Shown here piece after piece: positions 1-63,781 of a DNA stretch of 63,781 nt. The position numbers were made by a program, and so were the translations under genes. The notes beneath the pieces are model-generated. The model was not told the origin of the DNA. It did not search any database and worked only from the letters and a program-made list of their open reading frames with translations. Each line of letters opens with the position of its first letter. The first letter of the stretch is position 1. Source of the stretch: a virus; the IMG/VR virus record IMGVR_UViG_3300047409_000439, positions 1-63,781 of that record, one strand, 5' to 3'.

Positions 1-112
1 CGTCGATGCCTATTACATCATGCAGGAGGACCGCAAGCGCTCCTACAATCAAGAGCGGGCGCTGATTGCCTCCGCCGAACCGCACGACATCATCTCCTGG
101 TTCGCCGCCCAG
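1..112. repeat. Terminal direct overlap (left copy)
   Basis: The first 112 bases are repeated at 63670-63781 with one mismatch (C at 110, G at 63779). The overlap lies inside one open reading frame, which is restored when the ends are joined. This is what an assembler leaves at the join of a circular or circularly permuted phage genome. A true short terminal repeat is less likely, because the boundary falls inside a gene. The mismatch changes a Gln codon to Glu and may be an end-of-read error. Confidence 0.9.
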
Positions 113-727
113 AACAAGCATCTGGAGAAGCAGATCGCAGCGACGCTGGACTTGTACAGCGCTTCCAAGCCGGAAGGGGTCTGGGCACGAAGGCAATGCG
201 GTATCGGTCCCATCATCTCGGCGGGGCTGTTGGCGAACGTCAGTTTGTTCAAGCCCAACGGCGAGCGCGCGACAGCAGCCAACCTCTGGCGCTTTGCCGG
301 TATGGACCCGACGAGCAAATGGGAGAAGGGCAAGAAGCGGCCTTGGAACGCCTCGCTGAAAGTCTTGTGCTTCAAGATCGGGGACAGCTTCGTCAAGACC
401 TGCAACAACGAGGACAGCTACTACGGTCCCGTCTACAAGAAGCGCAAGGAGCTGGAGATCAGCAGGAACGAACAGTTCATGTTCAAGGAGCAAGCGGCTA
501 AAATTTTGGAGGTCAAGAAGATCGACAAGAAGACGGAAGCGTACAAAGCCTACATCCAGGGCAAGCTGCCCGACGCCCATATTCATGCCCGCGCCCGGCG
601 CTATGCCGTCAAGCTGTTCCTGTCGCACTACTTAGAGACAGCACAGCGGCTGCACGGCATCGAGCCCGCGATCCCATACATCATCGCGGTCGCCGGGCAC
701 GCCGATTACATTCCGCCGCCGCCCTGA
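1..727 (+). CDS. IS110-like (Transposase_20 domain only) protein, 3' part
   Basis: This is the C-terminal 90% of a protein that starts at 63581 and crosses the assembly join, 271 residues in all. The core resembles the C-terminal Transposase_20 (IS116/IS110/IS902) domain: helix-hairpin-helix-like GIGPIISAGLLA (about residues 97-108), then a FAGMDPTSKWEKGKKR loop (about 129-144) and a WNASLKVLCFK helix (about 145-155), where IS110 enzymes have their serine-containing loop and GN..LR segment. The N-terminal DEDD/RuvC-like domain of complete IS110 recombinases is absent, replaced by about 70 helical residues. The basic C-terminal third contains YYGPVYKKRKELE and HARARRYAVK. The stop codon TGA is the start of an array half-repeat. 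It could be an inactivated transposase domestically reused, or a partner protein of the array; catalytic activity cannot be judged from sequence alone. Confidence 0.72.
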   Translation, partial: VDAYYIMQEDRKRSYNQERALIASAEPHDIISWFAAQNKHLEKQIAATLDLYSASKPEGVWARRQCGIGPIISAGLLANVSLFKPNGERATAANLWRFAGMDPTSKWEKGKKRPWNASLKVLCFKIGDSFVKTCNNEDSYYGPVYKKRKELEISRNEQFMFKEQAAKILEVKKIDKKTEAYKAYIQGKLPDAHIHARARRYAVKLFLSHYLETAQRLHGIEPAIPYIIAVAGHADYIPPPP

Positions 728-1949
728 ACCAAAGAGATTGTGTCAAACCAAGTAGCTGGAGTGAACCAAAGTGAGAGTGTCAAACCAATGGATACGAGTG
801 AACCCCTACTGATGCGTCAAACCATATTGGCAGCGTGAACCAAGATGCCCGAGTCAAACCGAGAATCTTGCGTGAACCATTATCCTTGCGTCAAACCATA
901 TTGGCAGCGTGAACCAACATACGGGAGTTAAACCATATGTGCGGAGTGAACCAGTGCAACTGCGTCAAACCATGTTGTCCGCGTGAACCAAGTATCGCGT
1001 GTCAAACCTCTGAAGCGGAGTGAACCATAGCATACGTGTTAAACCGAGAATCTGGCGTGAACCAAAATGCGCGTGTCAAACCCAACAGCGCGGAGTGACC
1101 CATCCCCTCGGCGTCAAACCATGTCCTTAGCGGGAACCAGAATACGAGCGTCAAACCATAATCTCAGTGTGAACCATCTGATTGTGTCAAACCAATAGGA
1201 AGCGTGAACCAATGAGCAAGTGTCAACCCAAGTTGCGCGTGTGAACCAATTCAATTGCGTGAAACCATGTTTGACGAGTGAACCAGTGCTGGAGTGTCAA
1301 ACCAAATTGTGTGAGTGAACCATCGCGAGGATGTAAAACCAAAATACATGAGTGAACCATTGACGATGTGTCAACCCAAGAGACATGAGTGAACCGCCAT
1401 CGCAGCGTCAAACCAACATAATTGCGTGAGCCATCATCACAGCGTCAAACCATCATAGGAGTGCGAACCAAAATACATGTGTCCAACCAATCAGGAAGTG
1501 TGAACCAACCTATTTGCGTCAAACCAATCAATAAGCGTGAACCAACTTTCCTGTGTCAAACCAATCAGGAAGCGTGAACCAAGTTAAAGGAGTCAAACCA
1601 AGTGTACTGCGTGAACCAAACATGACGTGTCAAACCATGTTAACCGCGTGAGCCAAATTCGGTGCGTCAAACCAATGTTGTCGGCGCGAATCAACGATCC
1701 CCGCGTCAAACCAAAGTCCTTGTATGAGCCAAGATCACTGCGTCAAACCTAGAGCGCTGTGTGAACCATGTACAACGTGTCAAACCAAAGTACGAGTGTG
1801 AACCATAACTGGAGTGTCAAACCAAAGAACGAGTGTGAACCGCAATACCGGCGTTAAACCATAGAGGAGGAGTGAACCAAATCACCGGGGTCAAACCAAC
1901 CCTATCGCGTGAACCAAGATTGCCGTGTCAAACCAAATTGCTTGTGTGC
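725..1949 (+). repeat. Alternating two-half-repeat spacer array, right block
   Basis: Half-repeat A (GNGTCAAACCA, N usually A, C or T) and half-repeat B (GNGTGAACCA) alternate, each followed by a variable segment. I count 33 A units (first at 740, last at 1925), 33 B units and 66 spacers. Of the spacers, 61 are exactly 8 nt, three are 9 nt and two are 7 nt, giving a strict 37-nt period (740, 777, 814 and so on). Spacers are mostly unique with A or T favoured at the first position. Exceptions are tattggca at 825 and 899, atcaggaa at 1490 and 1564, aaatacat at 1342 and 1471, and the near-pair agaatctt/agaatctg at 862 and 1047. The block begins at the stop codon of the IS110-like gene and ends in a degenerate B unit (GTGTG, about 1943) next to the ribosome binding site of the gene at 1963. 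It is not coding: TGAACCA carries a stop and 37 is not a multiple of three. It is not a canonical CRISPR. Confidence 0.93.
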
Positions 1950-1962
1950 AACGGAGACCATC

Positions 1963-2124
1963 ATGAAATTCGTATTCCTATTCGGCCTGCCAATTGTCCT
2001 AATCTTTTACCTTTTCGTCTTGATCAATGAGATTTCCAAAGGCGATTGGACAATGCTGATCATCACGGCTTTCCTGCTTATCGTGATCTACGCCAACGAC
2101 GATACGCCGTTCTCGGGAATTTGA
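1963..2124 (+). CDS. Small membrane protein, 53 aa
   Basis: This 53-residue protein is almost entirely hydrophobic, with two likely membrane segments (about residues 3-20 and 28-44) separated by NEISKGDW. The ATG at 1963 is chosen because GGAG lies eight bases upstream; an upstream in-frame start at 1909 would place coding sequence inside the repeat array. It directly follows the last degenerate half-repeat and ends three bases before the primase gene, so it is probably co-transcribed with the replication genes. Function unknown. Its position beside the array and the IS110-like gene makes it a possible accessory of that locus, but nothing in the protein shows this. Confidence 0.7.
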   Translation: MKFVFLFGLPIVLIFYLFVLINEISKGDWTMLIITAFLLIVIYANDDTPFSGI

Positions 2125-4646: not shown

Positions 4647-5702
4647 ATGAAGCTGGACCGCGCGCCGTTCTTGCAGGCCGTGACGCTCTGCAAGCCTGCG
4701 ATAGCCGACAAATCGATCATTCAGGAACTGACCTTCCTGTTCTCGGACGGCGCGACCCTGACCGCGTACGACGATGTCATCGGCATCCAGGTTCCCTTCG
4801 CCAGCGGCCTCGTCGGCGGGGTCAAGGGCACGCTGCTGCTCGGCATGCTGGAGAACGCAACGGCCAAGCAGATCGAGATCGAACAGGACAACCCGGACGA
4901 GGTCTTGCTCAAATCCGGACGCTTCCGCGTCACGCTGGCGCTGCTGCCCGCCGACCGGGCGGTGTACCAGCTGCCCAAGGGCAAGGCCAAGCCCTTCCGC
5001 CTGTCCCTGAGCTTCTATGAGGCGCTCAAAGCCTGCCTGCCCGCTCTCAGCAGCAAGGCCGTGCTCCCGGACCAGCTCGGCATCTCCATCGCGCTGCATG
5101 ACAGCTTGCGGTTCTTCGCGACCGATTCGAATACCATGGCCTTCGCGACGATGAAGCACAATTGCGATCAATGGCCCTTCAAGCAAGGCTTGCGGGTCAT
5201 CCTGCCTGCTGCCTTCGCCAAGCAGCTGATCGACATCGGCACGGACGGGACGACCCTATATCTGACCGCGAACGAGGCTCTCGCCGAAACCGATAAAGGT
5301 ATCAAGCTGTTCTCCCGCCTGATCTTCAGCCCCAAGCCGCATGACTTTCAGCGTACGCTGGAGGCCGAGATGAAATCCGTCCAATTGTTCACCATCCCGC
5401 CCCGCCTGGAGACCATGCTGGACCGCGCCTTGCTGATCTTCGAGCATCACCCGGAGAAGCTGATCGCGGCCCAGCTCCAGATCAAGGACGGGACTTTGCG
5501 CGTAGCGGCGAAGACCAAGCATGAAGCATTGAACGACAGCACCAAACTGGACGAGATACCGCAGGACAAGACCGCGCTCGTCGTGCCCAAACGCCTCAAG
5601 CGCGTCCTGCCGCTGGCGGAGCGCATGGGCCTCACCGAAAACGGCGTTGTCCTGACCGGCAAGAACGTGATCTATCTGGTCGCCAATCATAGCGAGGCAT
5701 GA
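4647..5702 (+). CDS. DNA polymerase sliding clamp-like protein
   Basis: The 351-residue protein has the size and beta-clamp character of DnaN-type processivity factors, for example LTFLFSDGATLTAYDDVIGIQVPF near residues 28-51 and a later repeat-like domain LRFFATDSNTMAFATM near 155. A ring-shaped clamp would tether the PolA-type polymerase encoded next. The assignment rests on overall pattern and context (clamp, polymerase and clamp-loader genes in a row), not on a single motif. The start ATG is preceded by AAAGAGGA. It ends three bases before the polymerase gene. Confidence 0.65.
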   Translation: MKLDRAPFLQAVTLCKPAIADKSIIQELTFLFSDGATLTAYDDVIGIQVPFASGLVGGVKGTLLLGMLENATAKQIEIEQDNPDEVLLKSGRFRVTLALLPADRAVYQLPKGKAKPFRLSLSFYEALKACLPALSSKAVLPDQLGISIALHDSLRFFATDSNTMAFATMKHNCDQWPFKQGLRVILPAAFAKQLIDIGTDGTTLYLTANEALAETDKGIKLFSRLIFSPKPHDFQRTLEAEMKSVQLFTIPPRLETMLDRALLIFEHHPEKLIAAQLQIKDGTLRVAAKTKHEALNDSTKLDEIPQDKTALVVPKRLKRVLPLAERMGLTENGVVLTGKNVIYLVANHSEA

Positions 5703-5705
5703 CGC

Positions 5706-8270
5706 ATGGGCTGGTTCGCAAGCGGCATCGGAGCCGCACGGCGGCACAACAAGGAACCGTCACTGGCATTGCTGCATCGCTTGCAATGCCGCATCTGTCC
5801 CTTGGACAAGCTCAAGGAGAACCGGCATCCGCACATTCCGGCGCAAGGCGCGGAACGGCCTTTGATCTATGTGCTCGGCGAAGCGCCGGGCCGGGACGAG
5901 GACCGGGACAATCAGCAATTCATCGGCGCGTCCGGACAGGTCCTGCGCGAGGAATTGCCGGAGTATCTCTTGCCGCAAATCCGCTGGAACAACGTCGTAC
6001 GGACCCGGCCCAAGGATAACGAAGACCCGACCCCCATCGAGATCGAATGCTGCCGTCCTTCCGTCGCCGGAGACATCGCTGCGAGCAAGCCCAAGGCGAT
6101 CCTCGGCTTCGGCAACATCGCCTTGAAATGGGCAACGCAGCATTCCGGCATCATGACCTGGAGGGGCAGGAGAACGCCGGTCAACATCGACGGGCATGTC
6201 TGCTGGTATTATCCCATGCAGCATCCCGCCTCGATCCTGCACGAGCCGCACGAGGCCAAGAAGGACAGCCTGCATCGCGTCTTCAGATCGGACTTGGCCA
6301 AAGCCATCGCCGAGATCGACAGCCTGCCGGAGCCCGAAGTGCATGACCGCGAGGTTGCCGGATACGGCGTCGAATTCGCCTACGGCAACAAGGAAGGCGA
6401 TCTGCAACGGGTCGAAAGTCAGCTGCGCTGGGCCATGAAGCAGGAGGAGGTTGGGCTCGACCTTGAAACCAAGGGCTATCGTCCGTATGCGGAAGGGTCC
6501 AAGATATTGACCCTGGCCATCGGCTCCCGCGACAACAGTTTCTCCGTCGCGCTCGGGCATAAGCAGGCCAAATGGAGCCGCTCCGACCTCAAGCACTTGC
6601 GCGACTTGATCCGGGAATTCCTGCACAGCAAGGTGCGCAAGATCGTGCATTTCCTGCGCTTCGAAATGGAATGGCTCGCCGACCGCTATGGCTGGGACGT
6701 TGTCTATGCCGGGCGTTGGGGCGGCACGGAGACCCAAGCCGCCGTCATCGACGAGCGCTCCGGCGCGATGTCGCTGGATTTCCTCGTGCAGCAATATTTC
6801 GGCTTCGATCTGAAGGCCTTATCGCCGCTGAACAAGCTCCAGCTCGATAACGAGCCCATCGAGGACGTGCTCAGCTACAATGCGATGGACGCCAAATATC
6901 ATTATCTGCTCTGGCAGATGCAGAACGAGATCATCAAGCAGCGCAAGTTCGAGCATCTCTATGACGAGATGATCGCTCGCGTGCCGTCCTGCGTCCTGAC
7001 GCAATTACGCGGCATCCCGGTCAATCCGCAGATCGCGGCGACGCTGGCAACCAAATACGAGCAGCAGATCGAGGCCGCCCGCGCCGATGTCATGGCCGCG
7101 CCGCAGCTCAAGCAATTCCGCAGGCATTATGCAAAGGAAGGGATCAAGGAGTTCAAGCCGCTCTCCGACGATCATTGCGTCAAGCTATTCCGTCATGTCC
7201 TCGGCTACAATGAAGGCCTGTCGAAGCTGCCGGGGCGGGATCATAAATTCGCCGTCGATGAAGAAGTTCTGAAGCAGATCGGATTGCCCATCTGCTTTGA
7301 CATCCTGCGTCTGCGCAAGGCCTCGAAGCGCCTGAGCACCTATATCTACCGCAACAACGAGAAGAAGACGATTGTCTGGCCCGATGGGCTGCTGCATCCC
7401 AATTTCAATACCGTCAAGGTGCGGACCAAGCGCCTCTCCGCCGACGAGCCGAACTGCCAGAACATCCCCAAGCGCGACGAAGACGGCAAGGAAGTGCGCG
7501 CCCAGATCGAAGCTCCGGAAGGTCTGCTGCTTTGTTCCGCCGACCATGGCCAGATACAGGCACGCGGCATCGCCATGTCCTCCCAAGATAAACAATTCTG
7601 TCAAGCCTTATGGGAACGCTTCGACGTGCATGGCTATTGGGCCGAACGCATTGCCAAGGCCTATCCGCGCCGCGTCGATAACGTCACCAATTTCAAGGAC
7701 GAGGCGGGCAAGAAGGTGCTGAAGAAATTCCGTGCCGACATCAAGAACCAATGGACCTTTCCGCTGTTCTTCGGAGCCCGCATGGAGCGGGTCGCCGAGG
7801 AACTGCATATTCCGGTCAATGTCATAGAGCCGGAATTCAACGCCTTCGAAAAGATGTTCGCCGGGGTCTTTCAATGGCACGAGGAGTTGATCAGATTCTA
7901 CAACCGCAATGGCTACGTCGAAGACCTCTTTGGCTTCCGCCATCATGCGCCCCTATCCAAGAACGAGATCATCAATTCGCCCATTCAAAGTCTGGAGGCG
8001 CTGTTCGTCATGCGCGGCATGAACCAGCTCTCGCGTCATGCCGCGCAAACCGGGGATTGGCATTATCAGCCCATCGCGCAAATCCATGACGACCTGACTT
8101 TCCTCTTGCCAGAGAGTAACATCGATGTATATGTACAGAAGATCGTCACCGAGATGTTGAACGTGACCTTTCCCTGGGTCAACATCCCGATGACCTTGGA
8201 AGTCGCGATAGGCCCGAACCTGTTGGACATGAAAGAATGTCTGGTTGCCTCAAGCGACGATTGGAAGTAA
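5706..8270 (+). CDS. Uracil-DNA glycosylase-like / family A DNA polymerase fusion
   Basis: This 854-residue fusion carries an N-terminal UDG-superfamily domain: CRICPLDK (about residues 27-34, possible Fe-S ligand pair), VLGEAPGRDED (about 56-66) and a later YYPMQHPAS segment. A 3'-5' exonuclease follows (VGLDLETKG about 248-256, YNAMDAKYHYLL about 395-406). The polymerase domain has motif A SADHGQIQARGIA (about 610), motif B RADIKNQWTFPLFFGARM (about 675) and motif C IAQIHDDLTF (about 790). Motif C reads HDD where most PolA enzymes have HDE, and motif A has DHGQIQAR where most have DYSQIELR. It is the replicative polymerase, flanked by clamp and clamp-loader genes. The UDG-like part may police uracil or act only as a structural domain. 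Confidence 0.9.
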   Translation: MGWFASGIGAARRHNKEPSLALLHRLQCRICPLDKLKENRHPHIPAQGAERPLIYVLGEAPGRDEDRDNQQFIGASGQVLREELPEYLLPQIRWNNVVRTRPKDNEDPTPIEIECCRPSVAGDIAASKPKAILGFGNIALKWATQHSGIMTWRGRRTPVNIDGHVCWYYPMQHPASILHEPHEAKKDSLHRVFRSDLAKAIAEIDSLPEPEVHDREVAGYGVEFAYGNKEGDLQRVESQLRWAMKQEEVGLDLETKGYRPYAEGSKILTLAIGSRDNSFSVALGHKQAKWSRSDLKHLRDLIREFLHSKVRKIVHFLRFEMEWLADRYGWDVVYAGRWGGTETQAAVIDERSGAMSLDFLVQQYFGFDLKALSPLNKLQLDNEPIEDVLSYNAMDAKYHYLLWQMQNEIIKQRKFEHLYDEMIARVPSCVLTQLRGIPVNPQIAATLATKYEQQIEAARADVMAAPQLKQFRRHYAKEGIKEFKPLSDDHCVKLFRHVLGYNEGLSKLPGRDHKFAVDEEVLKQIGLPICFDILRLRKASKRLSTYIYRNNEKKTIVWPDGLLHPNFNTVKVRTKRLSADEPNCQNIPKRDEDGKEVRAQIEAPEGLLLCSADHGQIQARGIAMSSQDKQFCQALWERFDVHGYWAERIAKAYPRRVDNVTNFKDEAGKKVLKKFRADIKNQWTFPLFFGARMERVAEELHIPVNVIEPEFNAFEKMFAGVFQWHEELIRFYNRNGYVEDLFGFRHHAPLSKNEIINSPIQSLEALFVMRGMNQLSRHAAQTGDWHYQPIAQIHDDLTFLLPESNIDVYVQKIVTEMLNVTFPWVNIPMTLEVAIGPNLLDMKECLVASSDDWK

Positions 8271-8346
8271 CGGGGTGTAGCTCAGTTGGCAGAGCAGGCG
8301 GCATATAACCGTCAGGTCGCCGGTTCGAACCCGGCCATCCCTACCA
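8271..8346 (+). tRNA. tRNA, anticodon UAU (Ile, AUA codons), encoded CCA
   Basis: The cloverleaf can be drawn: acceptor arm CGGGGTG (8271-8277) with CATCCCT (8336-8342), D arm GCTC/GAGC, anticodon stem GGCGG/CCGTC with loop CATATAA, T arm GCCGG/CCGGC with loop TTCGAAC, then A and an encoded CCA. The anticodon is UAU, which would read AUA isoleucine codons. Two oddities are A in place of the near-universal U at position 33 and a C-U mismatch at the end of the acceptor stem. It starts directly after the polymerase stop codon. A decayed or anticodon-altered tRNA is possible. Confidence 0.8.
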
Positions 8347-8385
8347 TCGCTGTCCATGACCCTGCATACACGGGAGTTCTTGTCT

Positions 8386-9309
8386 ATGACCTTGCATACA
8401 AAGTACCGCCCGGAGAGCTTTCAGGAGGTCGTCGGCCAGGACCTCGTCATTGCCGCGCTGCAAGCGGTCCTCAAGGAGAAGCGCAGCCAGACCTTCCTGT
8501 TCCATGGCCCGTCCGGGACCGGCAAGACGACGCTCGCCCGCCTCTGCGCCCTGGGGCTGGGCTGTGTCCCCGGCCAGTCGATCATCGAATTCGACGCCGC
8601 GACCTATACCGGCATCGACGACATGCGCGAGATCGTCGCGACCAATCTGATGAAGCCGCTCGGCGGCGGCAACCGGGCCATCATCATCGACGAGGCCCAT
8701 AGATTGTCCGCTGCCGCCTGGGCCTCCATGCTGAAGACCCTGGAGGAGCCGCAGCCCTGGCTCTACTGGTTCCTCTGCACGACCGAGCTGGGCAAGGTCC
8801 CGGCCAACATCAAAACCCGCTGCACGGCCTTCGAGCTGCGGCTGGTCGATCAGGATACGCTGTTCGAGCTGCTCAACGGGATCGTCGAGAAAGAACGGCT
8901 GACCATCGAGGACGGCATCCTCGACCTCTGCGCCAGAGAAGCCGGAGGGTCGCCGCGTCAAGCCATCGTCAACCTCGGTATGTGCCTGCACGCGCAAGGC
9001 CGTCAAGACGCTGCCGCGCTGCTCAAATCCGCCGTCGATAGTAGCGAGGTCATCGACCTCTGCCGGGCCTTGGCCAAGCGCGAGCCCTGGCTCCGGGTCA
9101 AACCCATCCTGAGCGATCTGCAAAGCACCAATCCGGAGAGCATCAAGGCCGTCGTCTGCGCCTATATGAGCAAGGTCCTGCTCGGCGCGGCCAACCCGCG
9201 CGACGCCGGGCTGGCGGCGGAGGTTTTATCCGCTTTCATCAGTACACCCTTCTCGCCCGGAAGCGGCTTTGCGCCGGTTCTGGTCGCCTGCGCCAAAGTG
9301 CTTTTATGA
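8386..9309 (+). CDS. Clamp loader ATPase (DnaX / gp44-like)
   Basis: The 307-residue AAA+ protein begins with KYRPESFQEVVGQD, the classic clamp-loader N-terminus. It has Walker A GPSGTGKT (about residues 40-47), Walker B IIIDEAH (about 98-104) and a TRC sensor segment (about 141-143) in place of the usual SRC. It opens and loads the sliding clamp encoded at 4647. The start at 8386 has GGAG upstream. The in-frame ATG at 8356 encodes a near-duplicate MTLHT beginning but lies right against the tRNA with no binding site. Only one loader subunit was recognised, so the complex may be homomeric or use a host subunit. Confidence 0.87.
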   Translation: MTLHTKYRPESFQEVVGQDLVIAALQAVLKEKRSQTFLFHGPSGTGKTTLARLCALGLGCVPGQSIIEFDAATYTGIDDMREIVATNLMKPLGGGNRAIIIDEAHRLSAAAWASMLKTLEEPQPWLYWFLCTTELGKVPANIKTRCTAFELRLVDQDTLFELLNGIVEKERLTIEDGILDLCAREAGGSPRQAIVNLGMCLHAQGRQDAAALLKSAVDSSEVIDLCRALAKREPWLRVKPILSDLQSTNPESIKAVVCAYMSKVLLGAANPRDAGLAAEVLSAFISTPFSPGSGFAPVLVACAKVLL

Positions 9310-9355
9310 CCGCAGTATGTTTAGTCTTGAGACCTAGCAAAGCAAGGAACCTGAA

Positions 9356-9850
9356 ATGCCCATGACGATTGAAGACCTCAGAGAATATGCCGAGATCAGC
9401 AAGTACACGCTCGACGATGACAACATCAAGCAGCTGCAACTGATGCATGACGCAACCCAAAGCTACGCCGTTGCCGAAGAAGCCAGAAGCCTCGCCAAGC
9501 TCGAAGCCGAGGAACTGTATGCCAGACTGGACGCCGAGTTGCGCGCCGGAGCTGCCGAACGCAACGAGAAGATGTCAGAAACCCAGATCAAGATGCAGAT
9601 CGCCTTGAACCCGGAGATGATGGAAGCCGAGCGCCGCTTAATCGCCCGCGAGCGGACCAGGAACGACTGGTCCGGCGCGGTCAAGACCATCGAAGCACGC
9701 GGCTATTCCATGACCAATATGGGCAACCTGTATCAAGCCAACTACTTCAGCCGGGAATCGAGCGGCAAGGCCCGCGAGTACCAGAAGGACGATAGAGCCG
9801 AACGCGCCCGCAGCTTGAGACCGCAACGCCGGGGCTCCTGGGAGAGCTAA
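9356..9850 (+). CDS. Helical protein in the recombination/replication block, unknown
   Basis: The 164-residue protein is strongly helical and charged, with a likely coiled coil over about residues 35-85 (AVAEEARSLAKLEAEELYARLDAEL). It then has MSETQIKMQIALNPEMMEAERRL and a basic C-terminus. I do not recognise the family with certainty. Its place just upstream of the SSB and RecA/UvsX-type genes fits a small recombination mediator, but that is only context. AAGGA precedes the ATG at 9356, and AGTATGTTTAG lies 32 bases upstream. Confidence 0.75.
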   Translation: MPMTIEDLREYAEISKYTLDDDNIKQLQLMHDATQSYAVAEEARSLAKLEAEELYARLDAELRAGAAERNEKMSETQIKMQIALNPEMMEAERRLIARERTRNDWSGAVKTIEARGYSMTNMGNLYQANYFSRESSGKAREYQKDDRAERARSLRPQRRGSWES

Positions 9851-9853
9851 AGC

Positions 9854-10027
9854 ATGCTGATCCTATGCATCATCGCCGAGACGATGCTGGTCCTGCTGGG
9901 CTGTGTCTTCGCCCTCGGACTGGCCTATGCACTAGGACGGGCAGCCTCGCTGGGCTGGTATAAATCCAAATTCGAGCACCTTAAAAACATGATGCGACTG
10001 ATCGAAGAAAAGGAACCCAAGGAATGA
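9854..10027 (+). CDS. Small single-span membrane protein, 57 aa
   Basis: This 57-residue protein has one long hydrophobic segment (about residues 2-32) followed by a basic then acidic helical tail ending in EEKEPKE. Its stop overlaps the SSB start in an ATGA arrangement, and GGAGAG lies upstream near the previous stop. Function unknown; phage early regions often carry small membrane proteins that alter the host envelope. Confidence 0.7.
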   Translation: MLILCIIAETMLVLLGCVFALGLAYALGRAASLGWYKSKFEHLKNMMRLIEEKEPKE

Positions 10028-11193
10028 GTACAGAGTTTCGTTACCGAGGCCGTGACGTTAAGGACGTACGGGAGCGGGCCGAACAGCAAGGCGGCTCCTT
10101 CGACCGCTATACCGATTCGGCCATTCCCATGTTAAGGGTCGGCAAATCGCATACGCTTCGCATCCTGCCGCCCGCCTATGACATCGACATCGATAGATGG
10201 GGTAAGAACTGGAGCATTCCGATTTACGTCCATTACAATATCGGGCCGGATAAAGGCACGTATCTCTGCCTGCAACGCATGGAGCAGGGCGATTGCCCGA
10301 TCTGCGAGGCCCGCGCGGAGCAGAATTTGCAGGAAGGCGAGCCCGATCCCTTGAAGCCGACGCTGCGCTATCTCTGCTTCGTCATCGACCGGGACAACGA
10401 GCGCGAAGGGCCGATGCTCTGGGCGCTGCCTTGGACCATCGAGCGCGAGATTCAATCCTTGTCCCTCGACGGCAAGGAGGGCCTGCTGCCCATCGATCAT
10501 CCCGATGACGGCTATGACATCAGCTTCAGCCGCGAGGGCAAGGGCATCCAAACCAAATGGGTCGGGGTCAAGATCGCCCGGCGTTCTTCTCCGATCAGCG
10601 ACAACCCCAAGACGCAGAAGGCATGGCTCGCCTTTATCGAGGAGAACCCGCTGCCGGACACGTTGCATTTCGAAGACTATAAATATCTCGATAAGGTGTA
10701 TCGTGCCAAGACCCCAAAGAAAGACGAAGACCGCCGCCGCGCACAGAACGGCGACGACGATGACGACAGACCGGCACGGCGCGAACGCGCTGACCGCGAT
10801 GACGACGCGAGACCCGCTGCAAGAGCGGGCCGGGACGATGCTGACGAAAGGCGTGATCGTCATCCGCCTGAACGCGCTGGACGATATTCCGCTGATGCGG
10901 AAGCTGAGGATATTCCGGAGAACGTACATCGACGCTCTGGAAGCAAGGCTGAAGCGGACGCTGACGTTAAGCCAGCTCGCCGCCGGGGCAGAGAAGCAGC
11001 GGAAGAAGACGAAGCCGACGAAGCCGATCCTGCTCCTGAAGCAAAGACCCGTTCGGAGGCGGCACGCGAGCGGGTCAACAAGCTGAAATCCGGCGCGGAC
11101 AAGAACGGCAAGGCGGATGACGCCAAGGCCGAGCCGCGCGAGCGGCCCCGCCGCCGGGCGCGGGACGAGGACGAGGACGAAATCCCGTATTAG
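10024..11193 (+). CDS. Single-stranded DNA-binding protein (T4 gp32-like)
   Basis: The 389-residue protein has the gp32-type core: MLRVGKSHTLRILPP near residue 37, a zinc-binding loop with CLQRMEQGDCPIC (about 80-92), and the LRYLCFVIDRDNEREGP and ALPWTIEREI segments. Its last 140 or so residues are an extended, highly charged Asp/Arg/Glu-rich tail. In gp32 and bacterial SSB proteins such tails recruit partner proteins and weaken DNA binding. It coats single strands during replication and recombination. The gene is sandwiched between a small membrane protein and the RecA-like gene. The tail is longer than in T4 gp32. Confidence 0.85.
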   Translation: MSTEFRYRGRDVKDVRERAEQQGGSFDRYTDSAIPMLRVGKSHTLRILPPAYDIDIDRWGKNWSIPIYVHYNIGPDKGTYLCLQRMEQGDCPICEARAEQNLQEGEPDPLKPTLRYLCFVIDRDNEREGPMLWALPWTIEREIQSLSLDGKEGLLPIDHPDDGYDISFSREGKGIQTKWVGVKIARRSSPISDNPKTQKAWLAFIEENPLPDTLHFEDYKYLDKVYRAKTPKKDEDRRRAQNGDDDDDRPARRERADRDDDARPAARAGRDDADERRDRHPPERAGRYSADAEAEDIPENVHRRSGSKAEADADVKPARRRGREAAEEDEADEADPAPEAKTRSEAARERVNKLKSGADKNGKADDAKAEPRERPRRRARDEDEDEIPY

Positions 11194-11201
11194 GATAGGC
11201 C

Positions 11202-12206
11202 ATGCGGCCCGTACGCAAAACCAAGGGGGGCGGCAAACCGCCGCCCTCCGAGGACATCGCCTTTGTCAGCAGCGGCTGTACCGTGCTCGATCTGATGCTC
11301 GGGGGCGGCTGGCCGCTGGGCCGTATCTTCAACATCGTCGGCGACAAGAGCACGGGAAAGACTTTGCTCGCCATCGAAGCCTGCGCCAATTTCAACCGCA
11401 AATATCCAACCGGACGCATGTGCTACAGGGAAGCCGAGGCGGCCTTCGATCAGCAATACGCCGCTTCCATCGGCATGCCGGTCAAACGCATCTCCTTCGT
11501 CGGCGACCGGCCTTTCGACACCATCGAGGATTTCTACGAGGACCTCAACGAGCAATGCGATATTGCCCTGAGCAAGCGGACGCCGGGGCTGTACATCCTC
11601 GACAGCCTGGATGCCTTGACGGACGAGAGCGAACAAAAGCGCGAGTTCGACGCGGCCTCTTATGGCGGCGGCAAATCGAAGAAGCTGTCGGAGCTGTTCC
11701 GGCGTTCGGTGCGCAAGATCGAGCAGGCCCATATCGCGGTCGGCATCATCTCCCAGGTGCGGGCCAATATCGGCGTCGCCTTCGGGCGCAAGACGACGCG
11801 CAGCGGCGGCAAGGCGCTGGATTTCTACTCCTCGCAGACCATATATGTTTCCCATGTCGAAACTCTGTACCGCATCGTGATGGGCGACCGCATGGCCTAC
11901 GGGGTCCGCATCCGGGTCAAATGCGACAAGAACAAAGTCGCGCCCGCGTTCAGAGAATGCGAGTTTCCGATCTATTTCGGATATGGTATCGAGGACCTGA
12001 TCGCCAGCACGGAGTTTCTCATCAGTACGGCCCGGACCAAGGCCGCCGACCTCTCGGAAAGCGACGCCAAGAAGCTGATCAAAAGCTGTACGACGATGCG
12101 AAACGAGGACTATAACAAGCATCTCGCCGTCATCAATGCGGCGGTGCGTTCGGTCTGGCACGAGCGCGAAGCCGCCATGAAACCGTCAAGGAGTAAATAC
12201 ACATGA
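11202..12206 (+). CDS. RecA/UvsX-like recombinase
   Basis: The 334-residue RecA-fold ATPase has GGGWPLGRIFNIVG leading into a Walker A variant GDKSTGKT (residues 47-54). YILDSLDALTDESE forms the Walker B and following loop (near 130), and a flexible YGGGKSKKLSELFR region matches the RecA L1-containing stretch. It would form filaments on single-stranded DNA and drive strand exchange with the SSB encoded just upstream and the SbcCD pair downstream. Its stop overlaps the next gene by four bases. Confidence 0.85.
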   Translation: MRPVRKTKGGGKPPPSEDIAFVSSGCTVLDLMLGGGWPLGRIFNIVGDKSTGKTLLAIEACANFNRKYPTGRMCYREAEAAFDQQYAASIGMPVKRISFVGDRPFDTIEDFYEDLNEQCDIALSKRTPGLYILDSLDALTDESEQKREFDAASYGGGKSKKLSELFRRSVRKIEQAHIAVGIISQVRANIGVAFGRKTTRSGGKALDFYSSQTIYVSHVETLYRIVMGDRMAYGVRIRVKCDKNKVAPAFRECEFPIYFGYGIEDLIASTEFLISTARTKAADLSESDAKKLIKSCTTMRNEDYNKHLAVINAAVRSVWHEREAAMKPSRSKYT

Positions 12207-12568
12207 AAGGCAGACCCGGAATTCCCAAGCGCGCGACGCTGCATCCCATCCTGGTGCGGCTGTTCGAGGAGGCGAGCAAGCAAGGCATCACGCTGCAAGA
12301 CATCGCCGCCGAGACCGGCATGGCTCGCGAGACGCTGGGCCATTGGAAACAGCGGCGGCGCGAACCGGCCCTGATCGCGGTCGAGCAGGCCCTCAACGCC
12401 GTCGGCCTGCGCTTGGCGCTGGAGCCGCTGGCGCAGCCCAAGCCGCGTCCTGTCCATGTCCGCAAGCCCAACGCCTCGAAAGGCGAGCTGCGGCTCAAGG
12501 CAGGCCGTCCGCAGCGCAATCCGCTGGGCCAAATGCAGCAGCGCTTCCGCGAAGGCTTGCATAGCTGA
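12203..12568 (+). CDS. Helix-turn-helix (XRE-type) DNA-binding protein
   Basis: The 121-residue protein contains a helix-turn-helix: ITLQDIAAETGMARETLGHWKQRR (about residues 32-55), followed by a helix typical of XRE/Cro-type folds (PALIAVEQALNAVGLRLAL). The C-terminus is basic and proline-rich (QPKPRPVHVRKPN). It sits inside the recombination operon, overlapping genes on both sides by one to four bases. It is one of three candidates for the protein that binds the operators at 56.2-60.9 kb; the sequence does not decide between them. Confidence 0.75.
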   Translation: MKGRPGIPKRATLHPILVRLFEEASKQGITLQDIAAETGMARETLGHWKQRRREPALIAVEQALNAVGLRLALEPLAQPKPRPVHVRKPNASKGELRLKAGRPQRNPLGQMQQRFREGLHS

Positions 12569-13104
12569 TGAAACGAGGCGGGGGGAATGCCAAGGGCAGC
12601 GCCTTCGAGCGCTGGACCTGCGAGAAACTGTCCCGCCTCGTCGATCCCGAAGGCAAGGAAACGCATTTCTGGCGCACGAGCATGTCCGGCGGGCGTTCGA
12701 CGCTGCAACGCCGCAAGGGGGTCAAGAACGAGGCCCAGCTCGGCGACATCGCTTGCATCACGAAGCATAAGCAGGCGCAGCATCTGACCAAGCTGTTCCT
12801 GATCGAGTGCAAGCATCTCAAACGCCTCGATCTGGAAGGCTCGCTGCTCAAGGGACGCGGCAGGCTGCATCGCTTCTGGGCGAAACTCGCCGAGGAAGCG
12901 GAGGCGACCGACCGGCATCCGCTGCTGATCGCCAAGCAGAACAATTTCGGCACGCTGCTGTTGAGCAGCCATATGGGCTTTACGATGCTGCGGCGGCTGT
13001 ATCCGGTCACCTACTTTCTGACGACGCTGGCCCTGGCTGACGAACAGACCATCCGCGTGTCCTGGTTTCATGATCTGTGCAAGACGGAGGACGACGATCC
13101 ATGA
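12568..13104 (+). CDS. PDDEXK-type nuclease / Holliday-junction-resolvase-like
   Basis: The 178-residue protein begins with GGGNAKGSAFERWTCEKLSR, as in Holliday-junction-resolvase-like and VRR-type nucleases, followed by the acidic metal-binding pattern GDIAC (about residues 57-61) and LIECKHLKRLDLEG (about 76-89, giving E-x-K). It likely resolves recombination intermediates or trims branched DNA made by the neighbouring RecA and SbcCD proteins. It overlaps the preceding stop by one base and the SbcD-like gene by four. Confidence 0.7.
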   Translation: MKRGGGNAKGSAFERWTCEKLSRLVDPEGKETHFWRTSMSGGRSTLQRRKGVKNEAQLGDIACITKHKQAQHLTKLFLIECKHLKRLDLEGSLLKGRGRLHRFWAKLAEEAEATDRHPLLIAKQNNFGTLLLSSHMGFTMLRRLYPVTYFLTTLALADEQTIRVSWFHDLCKTEDDDP

Positions 13105-14084
13105 CCCTGCTGCTTTGTGCCGATCTGCATCTGACCAGCAAGCCGCGCGACGAGGACCGCTGGAAGCTGTTCCCCTGGCTCTGCCAGCAGATGCGGGAGA
13201 AACGCATCGACGACATTGCGATCCTGGGCGATTTGACCGACGCCAAGGACCGCCATGACAGCATCCTCGTCAACCGCCTCGTCGCCAATCTCAAGACCCT
13301 TGCCAAGGTCGGGCGCGTGTTCATTCTCAGAGGCAATCATGACTTCATCGACGAGCAGCATCCCTTCTTCCGCTTCCTGCATCGCCCGCCCGACATCAAT
13401 TACATCAACACGCCGACGCTGCATTTCTTTCACGATTTCTCTGCGCTCTTTATCCCATGCACGCGGGACGGAGAGTTGTTCAAGAGACAAGCCCAAGAGA
13501 CCAAACAACCGGAGTACATCCTGACCCATCAAACCTATGACGGCTGTCTCTCGGAGAACGGAACGAAGTTGAACGGCATTCCTCCATCCGTCTTCAAAGA
13601 TTATCCGGGCCGGGTTTGGTCGGGCGACATCCATACGCCGCAAAAGGTCGGCAAGAAGATCGAGTATGTCGGAGCGCCGTATCCGATCAAATTCGGCGAT
13701 TTGTACAAACCGCGCTGTGTCCTTCTATCCGCAACCGGGAGCGAGGACCTGCATTTCCCGTTTCAACAGAAACTGCTTGTAGAAATTGGTTCGGGAGAGA
13801 TGCTACCGCTGCTGCCGGAGGGGGCGCAGATCAAGCTCCGCGTGCATCTGCGGCGGCGCGATCTGGCGGACTGGCGAAGCCTGCGGGCAGGGCTCCAGGA
13901 GCAAGCGCTGGCGGCCAAGCTCGACCTCGTGAGTATCGAGCCAGCCTGGACCCCCGAGCGGGCTGTACGGGCTTCTGAGGAGGTCCTGCAAACACAATCC
14001 AAGGTTGAAATCGTTAAGGACTACGCGCAGCGCAAGAAGCTCGACAAAGCCCTGACGGCCTACGGCGTAAGCCTGCTGTCATGA
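13101..14084 (+). CDS. sbcD: SbcD / T4 gp47-like recombination nuclease subunit
   Basis: The 327-residue calcineurin-like phosphoesterase shows all metal motifs: CADLHL (Asp8, His10), ILGDLTD (about residue 46), RGNHDFID (about 77), LTHQTYDG (about 141) and WSGDIHTPQ (about 173). It is the nuclease subunit of the Mre11/SbcD family and pairs with the ATPase encoded immediately downstream. ATG at 13101 is chosen over the upstream in-frame start because the N-terminus then begins directly at the first metal motif and overlaps the previous gene by four bases. Confidence 0.9.
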   Translation: MTLLLCADLHLTSKPRDEDRWKLFPWLCQQMREKRIDDIAILGDLTDAKDRHDSILVNRLVANLKTLAKVGRVFILRGNHDFIDEQHPFFRFLHRPPDINYINTPTLHFFHDFSALFIPCTRDGELFKRQAQETKQPEYILTHQTYDGCLSENGTKLNGIPPSVFKDYPGRVWSGDIHTPQKVGKKIEYVGAPYPIKFGDLYKPRCVLLSATGSEDLHFPFQQKLLVEIGSGEMLPLLPEGAQIKLRVHLRRRDLADWRSLRAGLQEQALAAKLDLVSIEPAWTPERAVRASEEVLQTQSKVEIVKDYAQRKKLDKALTAYGVSLLS

Positions 14085-15847
14085 AACTGTGCTTTGAAAG
14101 CCTGCATCTCACCAACTTCAAGTCCTTCAGCGGCAAACACGTTTTCCCTCTCGATAGAGGTCCGGCGCTGGTCTATGTCGCCGGGCAGAACGAGAGCGAT
14201 CCTGAGCTGGGAGCCAACGGCGTCGGCAAAAGCACGCTGTTCGATGCCCTGCTTTGGGTCCTCTACGGCAAGACCGGCAGGGACAACCGGCCTGGAGCCT
14301 CGGTCGAACCCTGGGACGGCGAGCCTGCAACGAAAGTGTCATTACATCTGGTCGTCCAAGACGATGCCGTGACCATTACGAGATCGCGCAATCCGAACGC
14401 CTTGACGGTGCAATACCTCGACGCGGCGAAGACGACGGTCACGCAAGACGAGATCGACAGCATCTTGGGCATGACGGAGAGCATGTTCCGCTGCGCCGTC
14501 GTCCTGTCACAATTCGGCTCGCTGTTTCTCGATCTGAAAAGCGAAGCGCAATCGCAGATGTTCACCGATGCACTCAACCTCGATCAATGGCTGGAGGCAA
14601 GCAAGCGCGCGGGCGAGCGCAAGAAGACCTTGGCACAAGCGCTGAACGCCTTGACGCTCGGGCTCGCCAAGGCGGAAGGCCGTCTGGAAGAACTCAAGGC
14701 GCAGATGCAGCAGGAACGCCTCGCCGCCAAGGATTTCGACCGGGATTTACTGGAGCGCGTCGCCGCGCAGAAATATCTGCTTCAGACGACGGTCGAGGAG
14801 TTGCGCAGCCTGCCCGACGCCGCGACCGGGATCAAGCAGCTGGAAAAAGAGCTGCTGATTCTGGTCCAGGACCGCGCCAAGGTCGAGGCGCAATATCATG
14901 CCGCCCAAAAAGACATCACCAAACTGACGGCGACCCTGACGCAATACCGCAAGGCCTCGAAAGCCGAAAAACCGCTCTGTCCGGAATGCGGTCAAAGCGT
15001 CAGCGCGGACCATCTCGACCGCAAGCTCGAACTCCTGCAAAAAGAGTATACTCAAACCGTCGCGACCAAGGACAAGCTGTATAAGACGCTAGGTCCCTTG
15101 GACGAGCGCGTGCAGAAGCGGCGCAGCGAGATCAACCGTCAGCAGATCACCTTGAACAAGATGCTGGTCTTGCAGACGGACATCAAAGCTCAGAAAACCG
15201 TATTGGAGGACCTGACCCGGCAGGTCAACACGCATCGCCAGAAAGCCGAAACGCTGAAGGCCGCATTCACCAAGCTGTACAAACAGGTTGCCGGGGACAA
15301 GGCGGAGATCGCCGAACAGACCAAGGCGTTAGGCATGGCGGAGTATTGGGCCGGAGCCTTCAAGGAAATCCGGCTGGAGCTGATCGACGCGGTCTTGACG
15401 GAGTTGAGCCTCGCCGCGACCCAACACGCCGAAGCCTTGGGCCTGTCCGGCTGGCGCATCGCCTTCGCGACCGAGCGCGAGACCAAAAGCGGGTCGCTTT
15501 CCGCCGTGTTCAACGTGCTGCTCTATCCCGATCAGGACGAGCCTATCCGCTTCGAGGCGTATTCGGGGGGAGAGAGCCAGCGGCTTCAACTTGCCATTGC
15601 CTTCGGGCTGTCGGAGATCGTGCTGGCGCGGGCGGGGGTAACAGTCAATCTCGCGGCCTTCGACGAGCCGACAAGGGGCTTGTCGGCGGAAGGGGTCGAG
15701 GCCTTGCTGGAGCATCTGGCGGACCGCGCCAAGACGCTGAAGCAAACGGTTTATGTCATTGAACATCATAGCCTGGAGCGCGGCGCGTTCGATCAGACCC
15801 TGCTCGTACGCAAGACGGCGGCAGGTTCGCAGCTCAAGGAGATTTAG
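14081..15847 (+). CDS. sbcC: SbcC / T4 gp46-like recombination ATPase
   Basis: The 588-residue SMC/Rad50-type ATPase has an N-terminal Walker A GANGVGKST (about residues 44-52), long coiled-coil arms, a zinc-hook CPECG (about 300), the ABC signature YSGGESQRLQLAIAFGL (about 495) and Walker B LAAFDEPTRGL (about 523). With the SbcD-like subunit it processes double-strand ends for recombination-dependent replication. It is shorter than bacterial SbcC, as usual for phages. It is the last gene of the rightward unit; its 3' end overlaps a leftward gene by 14 bases. Confidence 0.92.
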   Translation: MKLCFESLHLTNFKSFSGKHVFPLDRGPALVYVAGQNESDPELGANGVGKSTLFDALLWVLYGKTGRDNRPGASVEPWDGEPATKVSLHLVVQDDAVTITRSRNPNALTVQYLDAAKTTVTQDEIDSILGMTESMFRCAVVLSQFGSLFLDLKSEAQSQMFTDALNLDQWLEASKRAGERKKTLAQALNALTLGLAKAEGRLEELKAQMQQERLAAKDFDRDLLERVAAQKYLLQTTVEELRSLPDAATGIKQLEKELLILVQDRAKVEAQYHAAQKDITKLTATLTQYRKASKAEKPLCPECGQSVSADHLDRKLELLQKEYTQTVATKDKLYKTLGPLDERVQKRRSEINRQQITLNKMLVLQTDIKAQKTVLEDLTRQVNTHRQKAETLKAAFTKLYKQVAGDKAEIAEQTKALGMAEYWAGAFKEIRLELIDAVLTELSLAATQHAEALGLSGWRIAFATERETKSGSLSAVFNVLLYPDQDEPIRFEAYSGGESQRLQLAIAFGLSEIVLARAGVTVNLAAFDEPTRGLSAEGVEALLEHLADRAKTLKQTVYVIEHHSLERGAFDQTLLVRKTAAGSQLKEI

Positions 15848-62101: not shown

Positions 62102-63064
62102 ATGAGCTTGATGCTTCCGCGCCTGATCGACGACCTGCTGGGCAGGGTCAACCGCTCGCAGCTGATCAAACTCCCTGGCAGCGAGTTGATGATCCCGGAG
62201 TTCGTCGCGTTGGCCCGCAAAGCGGAAAAGTTCAGCTTCGGGGAAATCCCTCTGGAGCTGGACCCCGACCCGGCACACGCTATTAATGGCCGTCCCATCT
62301 GGATTCAGCCGATGATCACCAAGGTCGAACATGAGGCCTGGGACGAGGGGCTGATCCCTCTGCCCGCGCCGGTCTGCTGGTTCGAGTTCATCCTCGGGGG
62401 CGAACCCTCGGGCATGCTGGTCCTCAAGACCCATCGCGACATCAAGGTCCAGCGGGTCGATTACGAGCCCAAGAAGGGAACCGGGGTCTTTACCGGAGTT
62501 TGGGTCGAGCGCTCGGAAGCGGAGCTGGACAAGGAGCTGCGGCTGAATACCAGCAACGGCGCGTCCTACTTTCAGCGCGGCGACCAAATCTATCGCGCCT
62601 CCGGGCCGCAAAAGGCTTTGGACTTTATTGCCTTGGCCAAAAGCAAAGGGACCAAGGTCCTGAACCTCGCGGCGGACCATTACCTGACCATGTACCTGAC
62701 GCTGATGCTGTACTCCTCGACGACGGAATTCCAGCAACAGGAAGCCCCGGCAAAGCTCAACAAAGCACGGGTCAAATCCGGGCATGAGCCGTTGCCGCCG
62801 CATCGTATCGTAACCATCGTGCCGGGGCGCTACCTGGAAAGGAAGGAGGCGCAAGGCGGCACGCATGCCAGCCCGCGCCTGCACTGGAGGCGTTCACACA
62901 AGCGCCATTTCGATCATCAGACCGGCAACGCCCGCTGGCTCGGGAACGAGGTCTACAAGGGACAGACCGGATGGTATGTTACCATCGTGCCGCGCTGTCT
63001 GGTAGGGCTGGCGGAGCTGGGCGAGGTCAGTCATGAATATCGCATTCAACATCCGAACCAATAG
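62102..63064 (+). CDS. Conserved phage protein upstream of the array, 320 aa
   Basis: The 320-residue protein ends with a recognisable pattern: LNKARVKSGHEPLPPHRIVTIVPG, then SPRLHWRRSHKRHF, LGNEVYKGQTGWYVTIVPRCLVG. Proteins with this histidine/arginine-rich C-terminus are frequent in phages and carry no established function. The last codons (CCG AAC CAA TAG) form a degenerate B half-repeat exactly 8 bases before the first array A unit, so the coding end merges with the array. Confidence 0.75.
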   Translation: MSLMLPRLIDDLLGRVNRSQLIKLPGSELMIPEFVALARKAEKFSFGEIPLELDPDPAHAINGRPIWIQPMITKVEHEAWDEGLIPLPAPVCWFEFILGGEPSGMLVLKTHRDIKVQRVDYEPKKGTGVFTGVWVERSEAELDKELRLNTSNGASYFQRGDQIYRASGPQKALDFIALAKSKGTKVLNLAADHYLTMYLTLMLYSSTTEFQQQEAPAKLNKARVKSGHEPLPPHRIVTIVPGRYLERKEAQGGTHASPRLHWRRSHKRHFDHQTGNARWLGNEVYKGQTGWYVTIVPRCLVGLAELGEVSHEYRIQHPNQ

Positions 63065-63575
63065 GTATGTGTCAAACCAAGTACCTAGCGTGAACCATGA
63101 TGAGGGCGTTAAACCATCGTCCGCGAGTGAACCATCGAGCCTGCGTTAAACCATGATCTGGGAGTGAACCAATACCGAGACGTTAAACCAAACGCGGAGC
63201 GTGAACCATAAGCCCTGTGTCAAACCCCGACGAAAGAGTGAACCAAACTATGAGCGTCAAACCATGCAAGGAGCGTGAGCCAAGAGCCCCGTGTCAAACC
63301 AATCATGGAGTGCGAGCCCAGTACAGCGTGTCAAACCAAGCACCGGGAGCGATCCAAGGAAAGGGAGTCAAACCGGGCCGTTAGTGTGAACCAAATTCCA
63401 TGAGTCAAACCAAGCAGAGCAAGTGAACCATGGAACTTGCGTCAAACCAATACGATGGAGTGAACCAATATCGACGAGTCAAACCAAATTGTTAGCGTGA
63501 ACCAATTTTATGGCGTTAAACCAAAGGGAATGTGTGAACCAAATCGGCAGTGTCTTAAACCAACTAAACGGAGTG
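63053..63575 (+). repeat. Alternating two-half-repeat spacer array, left block
   Basis: This is the same array as at 725-1949. It begins with a degenerate B unit (CCGAACCA, 63053-63060) inside the 62102 gene, then 14 A units (63069 to 63550, exactly 13 periods of 37) alternating with 13 B units, with all 28 spacers 8 nt long. The last A unit has a 2-base insertion and the last spacer (actaaacg) is followed by a truncated B unit GAGTG (63571-63575). Joined across the genome ends, that truncated unit and TGAACCA at 725 would make a complete GAGTGAACCA. No spacer here is identical to one in the right block, by my reading. Confidence 0.93.
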
Positions 63576-63580
63576 TTACT

Positions 63581-63781
63581 ATGACAACAGCATTCGATCC
63601 CATTACCAAATTAAGCAAGGACCTCAAAAGCGCCAGCGTAACCTTGGGCGCGGACGAGGCTCGCTTCCTCGTCGATGCCTATTACATCATGCAGGAGGAC
63701 CGCAAGCGCTCCTACAATCAAGAGCGGGCGCTGATTGCCTCCGCCGAACCGCACGACATCATCTCCTGGTTCGCCGCCGAG
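63581..63781 (+). CDS. IS110-like (Transposase_20 only) protein, 5' part
   Basis: These are the first 67 codons of the gene continued at base 1. The ATG at 63581 is preceded by ACGGAGTG, in which the truncated half-repeat itself supplies the ribosome binding site. The N-terminus (MTTAFDPITKLSKDLKSAS, then LGADEARFLVDAYYIMQEDRKRSYNQE) is helical and shows none of the DEDD residues of the IS110 catalytic domain. The reading frame is uninterrupted through the join. The last three bases differ by one from bases 110-112. Confidence 0.72.
   Translation, partial: MTTAFDPITKLSKDLKSASVTLGADEARFLVDAYYIMQEDRKRSYNQERALIASAEPHDIISWFAAE
63670..63781. repeat. Terminal direct overlap (right copy)
   Basis: Second copy of bases 1-112, one mismatch at 63779. 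See the left copy: it marks the join of a circular assembly, giving a unit length of about 63,669 bases. Confidence 0.9.

What the first reader, a model, noticed from the sequence alone, without database searches (positions are those of the whole stretch)
825..1571. Duplicated spacers separated by whole periods, and one in the opposite phase
Exact pairs are tattggca (825, 899; two periods apart), atcaggaa (1490, 1564; two periods) and aaatacat (1342 after an A unit, 1471 after a B unit, so 3.5 periods). A near-pair agaatctt/agaatctg (862, 1047; five periods) also shares an unusual G in the preceding repeat. Among 94 random 8-mers one expects about 0.07 identical pairs (about 4400 pairs over 65,536), so most are not chance. 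In-phase pairs suggest local block duplication; the out-of-phase pair cannot arise that way simply and would fit a shared source or target.
Basis: seen in the sequence. Interest (0 to 1): 0.72.

Follow-up and report, generated by a model that had tools for sequence, protein, structure and literature searches.

The report
Phage TIGR guide-RNA array, duplicated half-guides
A circularly mapping phage carries a long TIGR-Tas guide-RNA array (the recently described RNA-guided DNA-targeting system that is not CRISPR), and a few of its short guide segments are repeated a few units apart, most likely because pieces of the array were locally copied and re-paired rather than because the guides hit one shared target.

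Summary
The window is a 63.8-kb phage record whose two ends overlap by 112 bp. The repeats are a dual-repeat TIGR array: 33 guide units at 724-1945 and 14 at 63053-63571, flanking one 271-aa TasA (Nop-domain) gene that runs across the record's ends. The 94 spacers hold exactly three identical 8-mer pairs.

Across 26 TIGR arrays (720 spacers), same-phase spacer pairs are enriched over an empirical between-array null (loop side P = 4e-6, edge side P = 0.004) and lie close together (P = 0.002). Opposite-phase pairs are at chance (4 seen, 4.4 expected). So in-phase pairs fit local duplication, but of half-units or single units rather than blocks; the out-of-phase pair needs no explanation. Relatives show whole-unit duplication, re-pairing of half-units, order changes and slow substitution of guides.

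No target was found in the phage, relatives, IMG/VR or 275 host-family genomes; one promising lead failed its control. New member of a known kind, with some evidence on how TIGR arrays change.

The parts
724..1945 (+). Downstream TIGR array: 33 units of edge repeat (GHG-TGAACCA), 8-nt spacer A, loop repeat (GHG-TCAAACCA), 8-nt spacer B; period 37
   Evidence: parse; column composition; TRF period 37/74
63053..63571 (+). Upstream TIGR array: 14 units with the same repeats, begins with a truncated edge repeat (CCGAACCA) and ends in a degenerate edge before the tasA start
63581..63781 (+). tasA, 5' part (ATG at 63581; frame runs into the terminal redundancy that joins to window position 1)
1..727 (+). 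tasA, 3' part (listed as ORF 20-727); stop codon TGA lies inside the first edge repeat; whole protein 271 aa, Nop domain only
825..832 (+). spacer B TATTGGCA, unit 3 (paired with spacer A CTACTGAT)
899..906 (+). spacer B TATTGGCA, unit 5 (paired with TTATCCTT); 31 identical bases around it and the unit-3 copy
1490..1497 (+). spacer B ATCAGGAA (paired with AAATACAT)
1564..1571 (+). spacer B ATCAGGAA (paired with ACTTTCCT); flanking repeat bases differ from the other copy
1342..1349 (+). spacer B AAATACAT (paired with TCGCGAGG)
1471..1478 (+). spacer A AAATACAT, opposite phase
862..869 (+). spacer B AGAATCTT after a loop repeat ending CCG
1047..1054 (+). spacer B AGAATCTG after a loop repeat ending CCG
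1963..2124 (+). 53-aa probable membrane peptide ORF directly after the array (not shown to belong to the system)

Best explanation
This is a phage-borne TIGR-TasA system. The transcript of each array would be cut in the edge repeats into ~37-nt guide RNAs (tigRNAs), each with two 8-nt guide segments, which a TasA dimer uses to bind double-stranded DNA, one guide segment on each strand; TasA has no nuclease domain, so the likely act is binding or blocking (all of this inferred by homology). The duplicated spacers are traces of array evolution: short-range copying and recombination between the 8-10-bp repeats duplicates units or half-units in phase and re-pairs a spacer B with a different spacer A. 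The single out-of-phase pair is best read as chance.
For: System: alternating dual repeats with 8-nt spacers on both sides of the gene; protein matches TasR 9mty (phmmer 2e-14; profile 5e-24) and TasH (4e-7; 1e-13); the model (pLDDT 88) matches TasH and TasR structures at Foldseek E ~1e-6; its only relative among 50,697 phage records is Salicola phage CGphi29, the SpTIGR phage of Faure et al. (PMC12045711); 34 IMG/VR relatives, most with dual-repeat arrays of period 34-37 near tas. Duplication: in-phase pairs enriched over unrelated-array pairs (loop side 13 seen, 2.6 expected, P 4e-6; edge side 6 seen, 1.5 expected, P 0.004), opposite phase at chance; in-phase pairs cluster within 5 units (P 0.0017). 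Mechanism seen in relatives: exact whole-unit copy in L304 (TCTCCAGC/GCGAGAAT), one-substitution unit copy two units away in L309, diverged unit copy in L022; half-unit re-pairing (L003 AGCTCATC/TAAGTTTC and AAGTCGAT/TAACTCTG against L005 AGCTCATC/TAACTCTA with its variant loop repeat).
Against: In this array the copies are isolated half-units; a simple tandem duplication would also copy neighbours, so at least one further event (re-pairing or loss) must be assumed. Two of the three pairs have flanking repeat bases that differ, so they are not fresh copies. With a positional Markov null fitted to each small array the in-phase excess over all arrays vanishes (<=1 mismatch loop side 13 vs 9.0), although that null overfits arrays of about 12 spacers per phase. 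Without the window's downstream array the proximity result is only P = 0.055. Expression, processing and targeting of this array are not shown.
Confidence: 0.8

Rival explanations
1. Shared targets: identical spacers recur because different guides need the same half-site (a conserved or repeated site in a competitor phage, plasmid or host), in either phase since the two guides are interchangeable.
For: Faure et al. report that swapped A and B spacers still work (PMC12045711), so an out-of-phase repeat would be functional. Guides shared between relatives change by substitution while kept as pairs, as if tracking a changing target. Flanking repeats of two pairs have diverged while the spacers stayed identical.
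Against: Opposite-phase pairs are not enriched, and copies lie close together, which a shared target does not predict. Scans for CTACTGAT..TGCCAATA and TTATCCTT..TGCCAATA gave 85 and 79 chance-like hits, with no convincing gene common to both. No guide pair matches the phage itself or relatives above pairing-permuted controls.
Confidence: 0.12
2. Chance: with 94 biased 8-mers, three pairs are a rare but possible coincidence.
For: Source-sampling from a GC-rich genome stretch gives P(>=3) = 0.024; one-mismatch pairs in this array are not in excess under the Markov null.
Against: Other nulls give 0.0008-0.008; loop-side in-phase pairs in the window alone are 4 against 0.4 expected from unrelated arrays (P 0.0007).
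Confidence: 0.08
3. Not a guide array: repeated protein-binding sites (origin iterons or a partition site) with meaningless spacers.
For: The array sits before replication genes (primase, polymerase processivity factor, DNA polymerase); repeats of 18-19 bp periodicity are common in origins (own knowledge).
Against: Strict alternation of two repeats, fixed 8-nt variable spacers, an adjacent Tas homologue, the same arrangement in many phages, and guides shared as pairs between relatives.
Confidence: 0.03

Closest known systems
TIGR-Tas dual-repeat systems with TasA (Faure et al. 2025, PMC12045711)
   Same: Nop-domain protein without nuclease, arrays on both sides of the gene, alternating edge and loop repeats ending CCA, 8-nt spacers, truncated edge repeats at array ends, phage host.
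   Different: 47 units (paper: most often 5-15), period 37 not 36, no terminator found after the arrays, no ParB gene noticed beside it; internal in-phase spacer duplication is not described in the parts of the paper's main text that I read or searched.
Salicola phage CGphi29 SpTIGR (TasH)
   Same: 8-nt spacers, edge GCGAGCCA (close variants also seen in the window), loop AAGACAACCA, homologous Nop domain.
   Different: TasH carries an N-terminal HNH nuclease that this protein lacks; only 26% identity over 64% of the protein.
IS110/IS621 bridge-RNA recombinases
   Same: Related Nop-like RNA-binding domain (profile E 2.6e-7, Foldseek E 0.04).
   Different: No N-terminal DEDD recombinase domain and no single bridge RNA; an array of guides instead.
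CRISPR arrays
   Same: Repeat-spacer guide array.
   Different: Two alternating 8-10-nt repeats, 8-nt spacers, shared units in changed order between relatives rather than polar addition.

Membership tests
TIGR-TasA (dual-repeat) | Two alternating 8-12-nt repeats interspaced by about 9-nt (8-12) spacers | tested here: met
   94 repeats strictly alternating, 8-nt spacers plus conserved G-H-G
TIGR-TasA (dual-repeat) | Array adjacent to a gene for a Nop-domain Tas protein | tested here: met
   Protein homologous to TasR 9mty and TasH by sequence and by fold; arrays abut both ends of the gene
TIGR-TasA (dual-repeat) | No nuclease domain (TasA rather than TasR or TasH) | tested here: met
   271 aa; PDB matches fall in the Nop part (chain residues 123-319 of TasR, 86-302 of TasH); no Pfam nuclease
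TIGR-TasA (dual-repeat) | Box C (CCA) and box D (UG or covarying) shared by both repeats | tested here: met
   Both repeats end CCA; both start G-H-G-U; the box D is a variant, which the paper allows
TIGR-TasA (dual-repeat) | Array begins and ends with truncated edge repeats | tested here: met
   CTGAACCA and CCGAACCA at the starts; degenerate GTGCAACG and GTGTTACT at the ends
TIGR-TasA (dual-repeat) | Rho-independent terminator after the array | tested here: not met
   None found after either array by simple scan; the paper calls it typical, not obligatory, so it is not treated as defining
TIGR-TasA (dual-repeat) | Processing into 36-nt tigRNAs that bind the Tas protein | not testable with these tools
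   Needs RNA data
TIGR-TasA (dual-repeat) | Tandem-spacer recognition of both strands of a DNA target | tested here: inconclusive
   No target found for spacer A + reverse complement of spacer B, gaps 0-4
CRISPR array | One direct repeat of about 25-36 nt with spacers of similar size | tested here: not met
   Two alternating short repeats, 8-nt spacers
CRISPR array | cas genes nearby | not tested
   Only some neighbours were annotated; none of those was a cas gene
IS110 bridge-RNA element | N-terminal DEDD recombinase domain | tested here: not met
   271-aa protein aligns to a stretch behind the N-terminal domain of IS621 (chain residues 131-239)

The most novel reading that the evidence does not exclude
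TIGR arrays grow and adapt by half-units: a loop-repeat plus spacer-B module is copied a few units away and joined to a new spacer A, so that one guide half is re-used and the two halves of the dual guide evolve unequally. The loop-side excess of near-identical in-phase pairs (13 seen, 2.6 expected) against a weaker edge-side excess (6 seen, 1.5 expected) would be its trace.
Probability: 0.15. Interest if true: 0.65.

Novelty: new member of a known kind. Interest (0 to 1): 0.45.

Why it matters
How TIGR arrays arise, expand and find their targets is stated as open by the discoverers (PMC12045711). This phage carries a long array (47 guides), and its relatives form families of arrays that share guides. 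Together they show which changes occur: whole-unit copies, half-unit re-pairing, order changes and slow substitution of guides, with no sign of polar addition. That makes the expansion question testable with more arrays of the same families. The same data show that 16-nt dual guides are too short for naive target searches: an attractive target appeared and failed its control.

Tried and rejected
(1) Self-targeting: all 47 guide pairs against the phage genome outside the arrays, three geometries, gaps 0-2; same as pairing-permuted controls. (2) Targets in the other tas loci (490 kb, 328 units): same as permuted. (3) Lead: the guide shared by all five distinct arrays of one relative family (spacer A TAAAACTC, spacer B CMACWACT) matched KTQVV in a portal gene of many marine phages with a 1-nt gap, and its variants were synonymous. 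(4) Peptide-level match of guide targets to phage proteins: null. (5) Relatives of the phage by DNA polymerase: an apparent gap-2 excess came from low-complexity acidic codons. (6) 275 genomes of the host family of the Halomonas relative with one guide: 0. (7) The two units sharing TATTGGCA in IMG/VR: chance-like. (8) The same repeats elsewhere in IMG/VR: none. (9) Promoters and terminators around the arrays: nothing useful. (10) Loop-side bias of duplications: strong against column-shuffle and cross-array nulls, absent against a per-array Markov null; left as suggestive.

Full report
What is there. The window is a virus record of 63,781 bases whose ends share 112 bp with one mismatch, so it is circular or terminally redundant. 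Joining the ends gives one 271-aa reading frame, ATG at 63581 to the stop at 727. On both sides of it lie arrays of two strictly alternating short repeats: 28 repeats upstream (63053-63571) and 66 downstream (724-1945), that is 14 and 33 units. Column composition shows a conserved core plus G-H-G before it, leaving 8 variable bases per spacer.

What it is. The protein matches the solved TasR (9mty) and TasH by sequence, and the AlphaFold model of its 235-aa part that lies whole in the window (pLDDT 88) matches TasH and TasR at Foldseek E about 1e-6, with IS621 next. The array has the TIGR layout of Faure et al. [quoted passage not shown] Edge variants in the window (GCGAGCC, GTGAGCCA) resemble the edge repeats of relatives and of Salicola phage CGphi29, which is the only homologue among 50,697 phage records and one of the paper's founding examples. 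34 further loci in IMG/VR and 9 in bacterial genomes (Halomonas, acidobacteria, Propionivibrio and others) encode relatives, most with dual-repeat arrays.

Checking the observation. The three exact pairs are real and are the only ones. Expected number and P(>=3): column shuffle 0.16, 0.0008; positional Markov 0.35, 0.006; sampling from four real sequence sources 0.22-0.61, 0.0025-0.024. One exact pair by chance is not remarkable (P 0.15-0.30). Near-pairs are not in excess overall under the Markov null, though AGAATCTT/AGAATCTG also share the rare CCG ending of the loop repeat (3 of 47 loop repeats).

Phase. I parsed 26 arrays (720 spacers) and used pairs of spacers from unrelated arrays as an empirical null. 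Within arrays, loop-side pairs at <=1 mismatch number 13 against 2.6 expected (P 4e-6), edge-side pairs 6 against 1.5 (P 0.004), and opposite-phase pairs 4 against 4.4. In-phase pairs lie close: 14 of 19 within five units, null mean 8.1, P 0.0017; without the window's downstream array P is 0.055. Caveat: a Markov null fitted to each small array removes the in-phase excess, probably by overfitting.

Mechanism. Relatives show the steps. Whole units are copied: L304 holds TCTCCAGC/GCGAGAAT in both its arrays, L309 has GAAATAAC/CACTGGTA and GAAGTAAC/CACTGGTA two units apart, L022 has a unit pair differing by one base in each spacer. Half-units are re-paired: L003 has AGCTCATC/TAAGTTTC and AAGTCGAT/TAACTCTG, L005 has AGCTCATC/TAACTCTA with the variant loop repeat that accompanies TAACTCTG in L003, as a deletion between loop repeats would leave. 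Units shared between L003, L005, L007, L008 and L009 keep both spacers together, change by substitution, and change order (units 6, 8, 9 of L003 appear as 7, 6, 5 in L007), so there is no CRISPR-like polarity. In the window only half-units recur and their neighbours do not, so a block duplication alone does not explain it; copying plus re-pairing does. These steps are inferred from comparison, not observed.

Targets. By the published rules the target is spacer A followed by the reverse complement of spacer B, with a gap of 0-2 (the arrangement is my derivation from the reported 3' overhangs). No match above pairing-permuted controls was found in the phage, in tas relatives, in DNA-polymerase relatives, at peptide level, or for one guide in 275 genomes of the family of Halomonas sp. 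NO4. A promising match of a conserved guide to a marine-phage portal gene failed the test with the other guides of the same arrays. Scans with the two units sharing TATTGGCA were chance-like. The spacers average 42% G+C with a 90% A/T first base, against 59% for the phage genome, which also argues against a self origin.

Verdict. A genuine TIGR-TasA system by anatomy and homology, new as an individual and long, but of a known kind. The finding's duplications are real, mostly in-phase and local, and best explained by array recombination. Function (binding of DNA of competing elements without cutting) is inferred from homology only.

Noticed in passing
window 1-112 and 63670-63781: 112-bp terminal overlap with one mismatch: the record is circular or terminally redundant and splits the tasA gene, which is why simple ORF lists show only 235 of its 271 residues.
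   Followed up: yes
L003, L005, L007, L008, L009 (arrays right after tas): Family of arrays sharing many dual guides that drift by substitution, are re-paired and change order; spacer changes are sometimes three or six bases apart, hinting at coding targets.
   Followed up: partly
L280 (IMGVR_UViG_3300045284_000483): 9.4-kb contig 99.98% identical to window 4690-14093, the same phage in another record; it ends before the arrays, so array change could not be seen.
   Followed up: yes
L306 and L311, directly downstream of tas: Reading frames that look ParB-like (by eye, not searched), matching the TasA-ParB operons mentioned by Faure et al.
   Followed up: no
window 8271-8346: tRNA-Ile with anticodon TAT directly after the DNA polymerase gene.
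   Followed up: no
window 51932-52813 and 54355-55908: Radical SAM protein (PF04055) near an SNF2-type helicase with DpdE-like matches.
   Followed up: no
L304 and L308: The genome search reports a stop codon inside the matched tas region in both; not checked whether the genes are broken or the match overruns the end.
   Followed up: no
window arrays, first spacer base: 90% A/T at spacer position 1, and T-rich position 4, not explained by the phage's own composition.
   Followed up: partly
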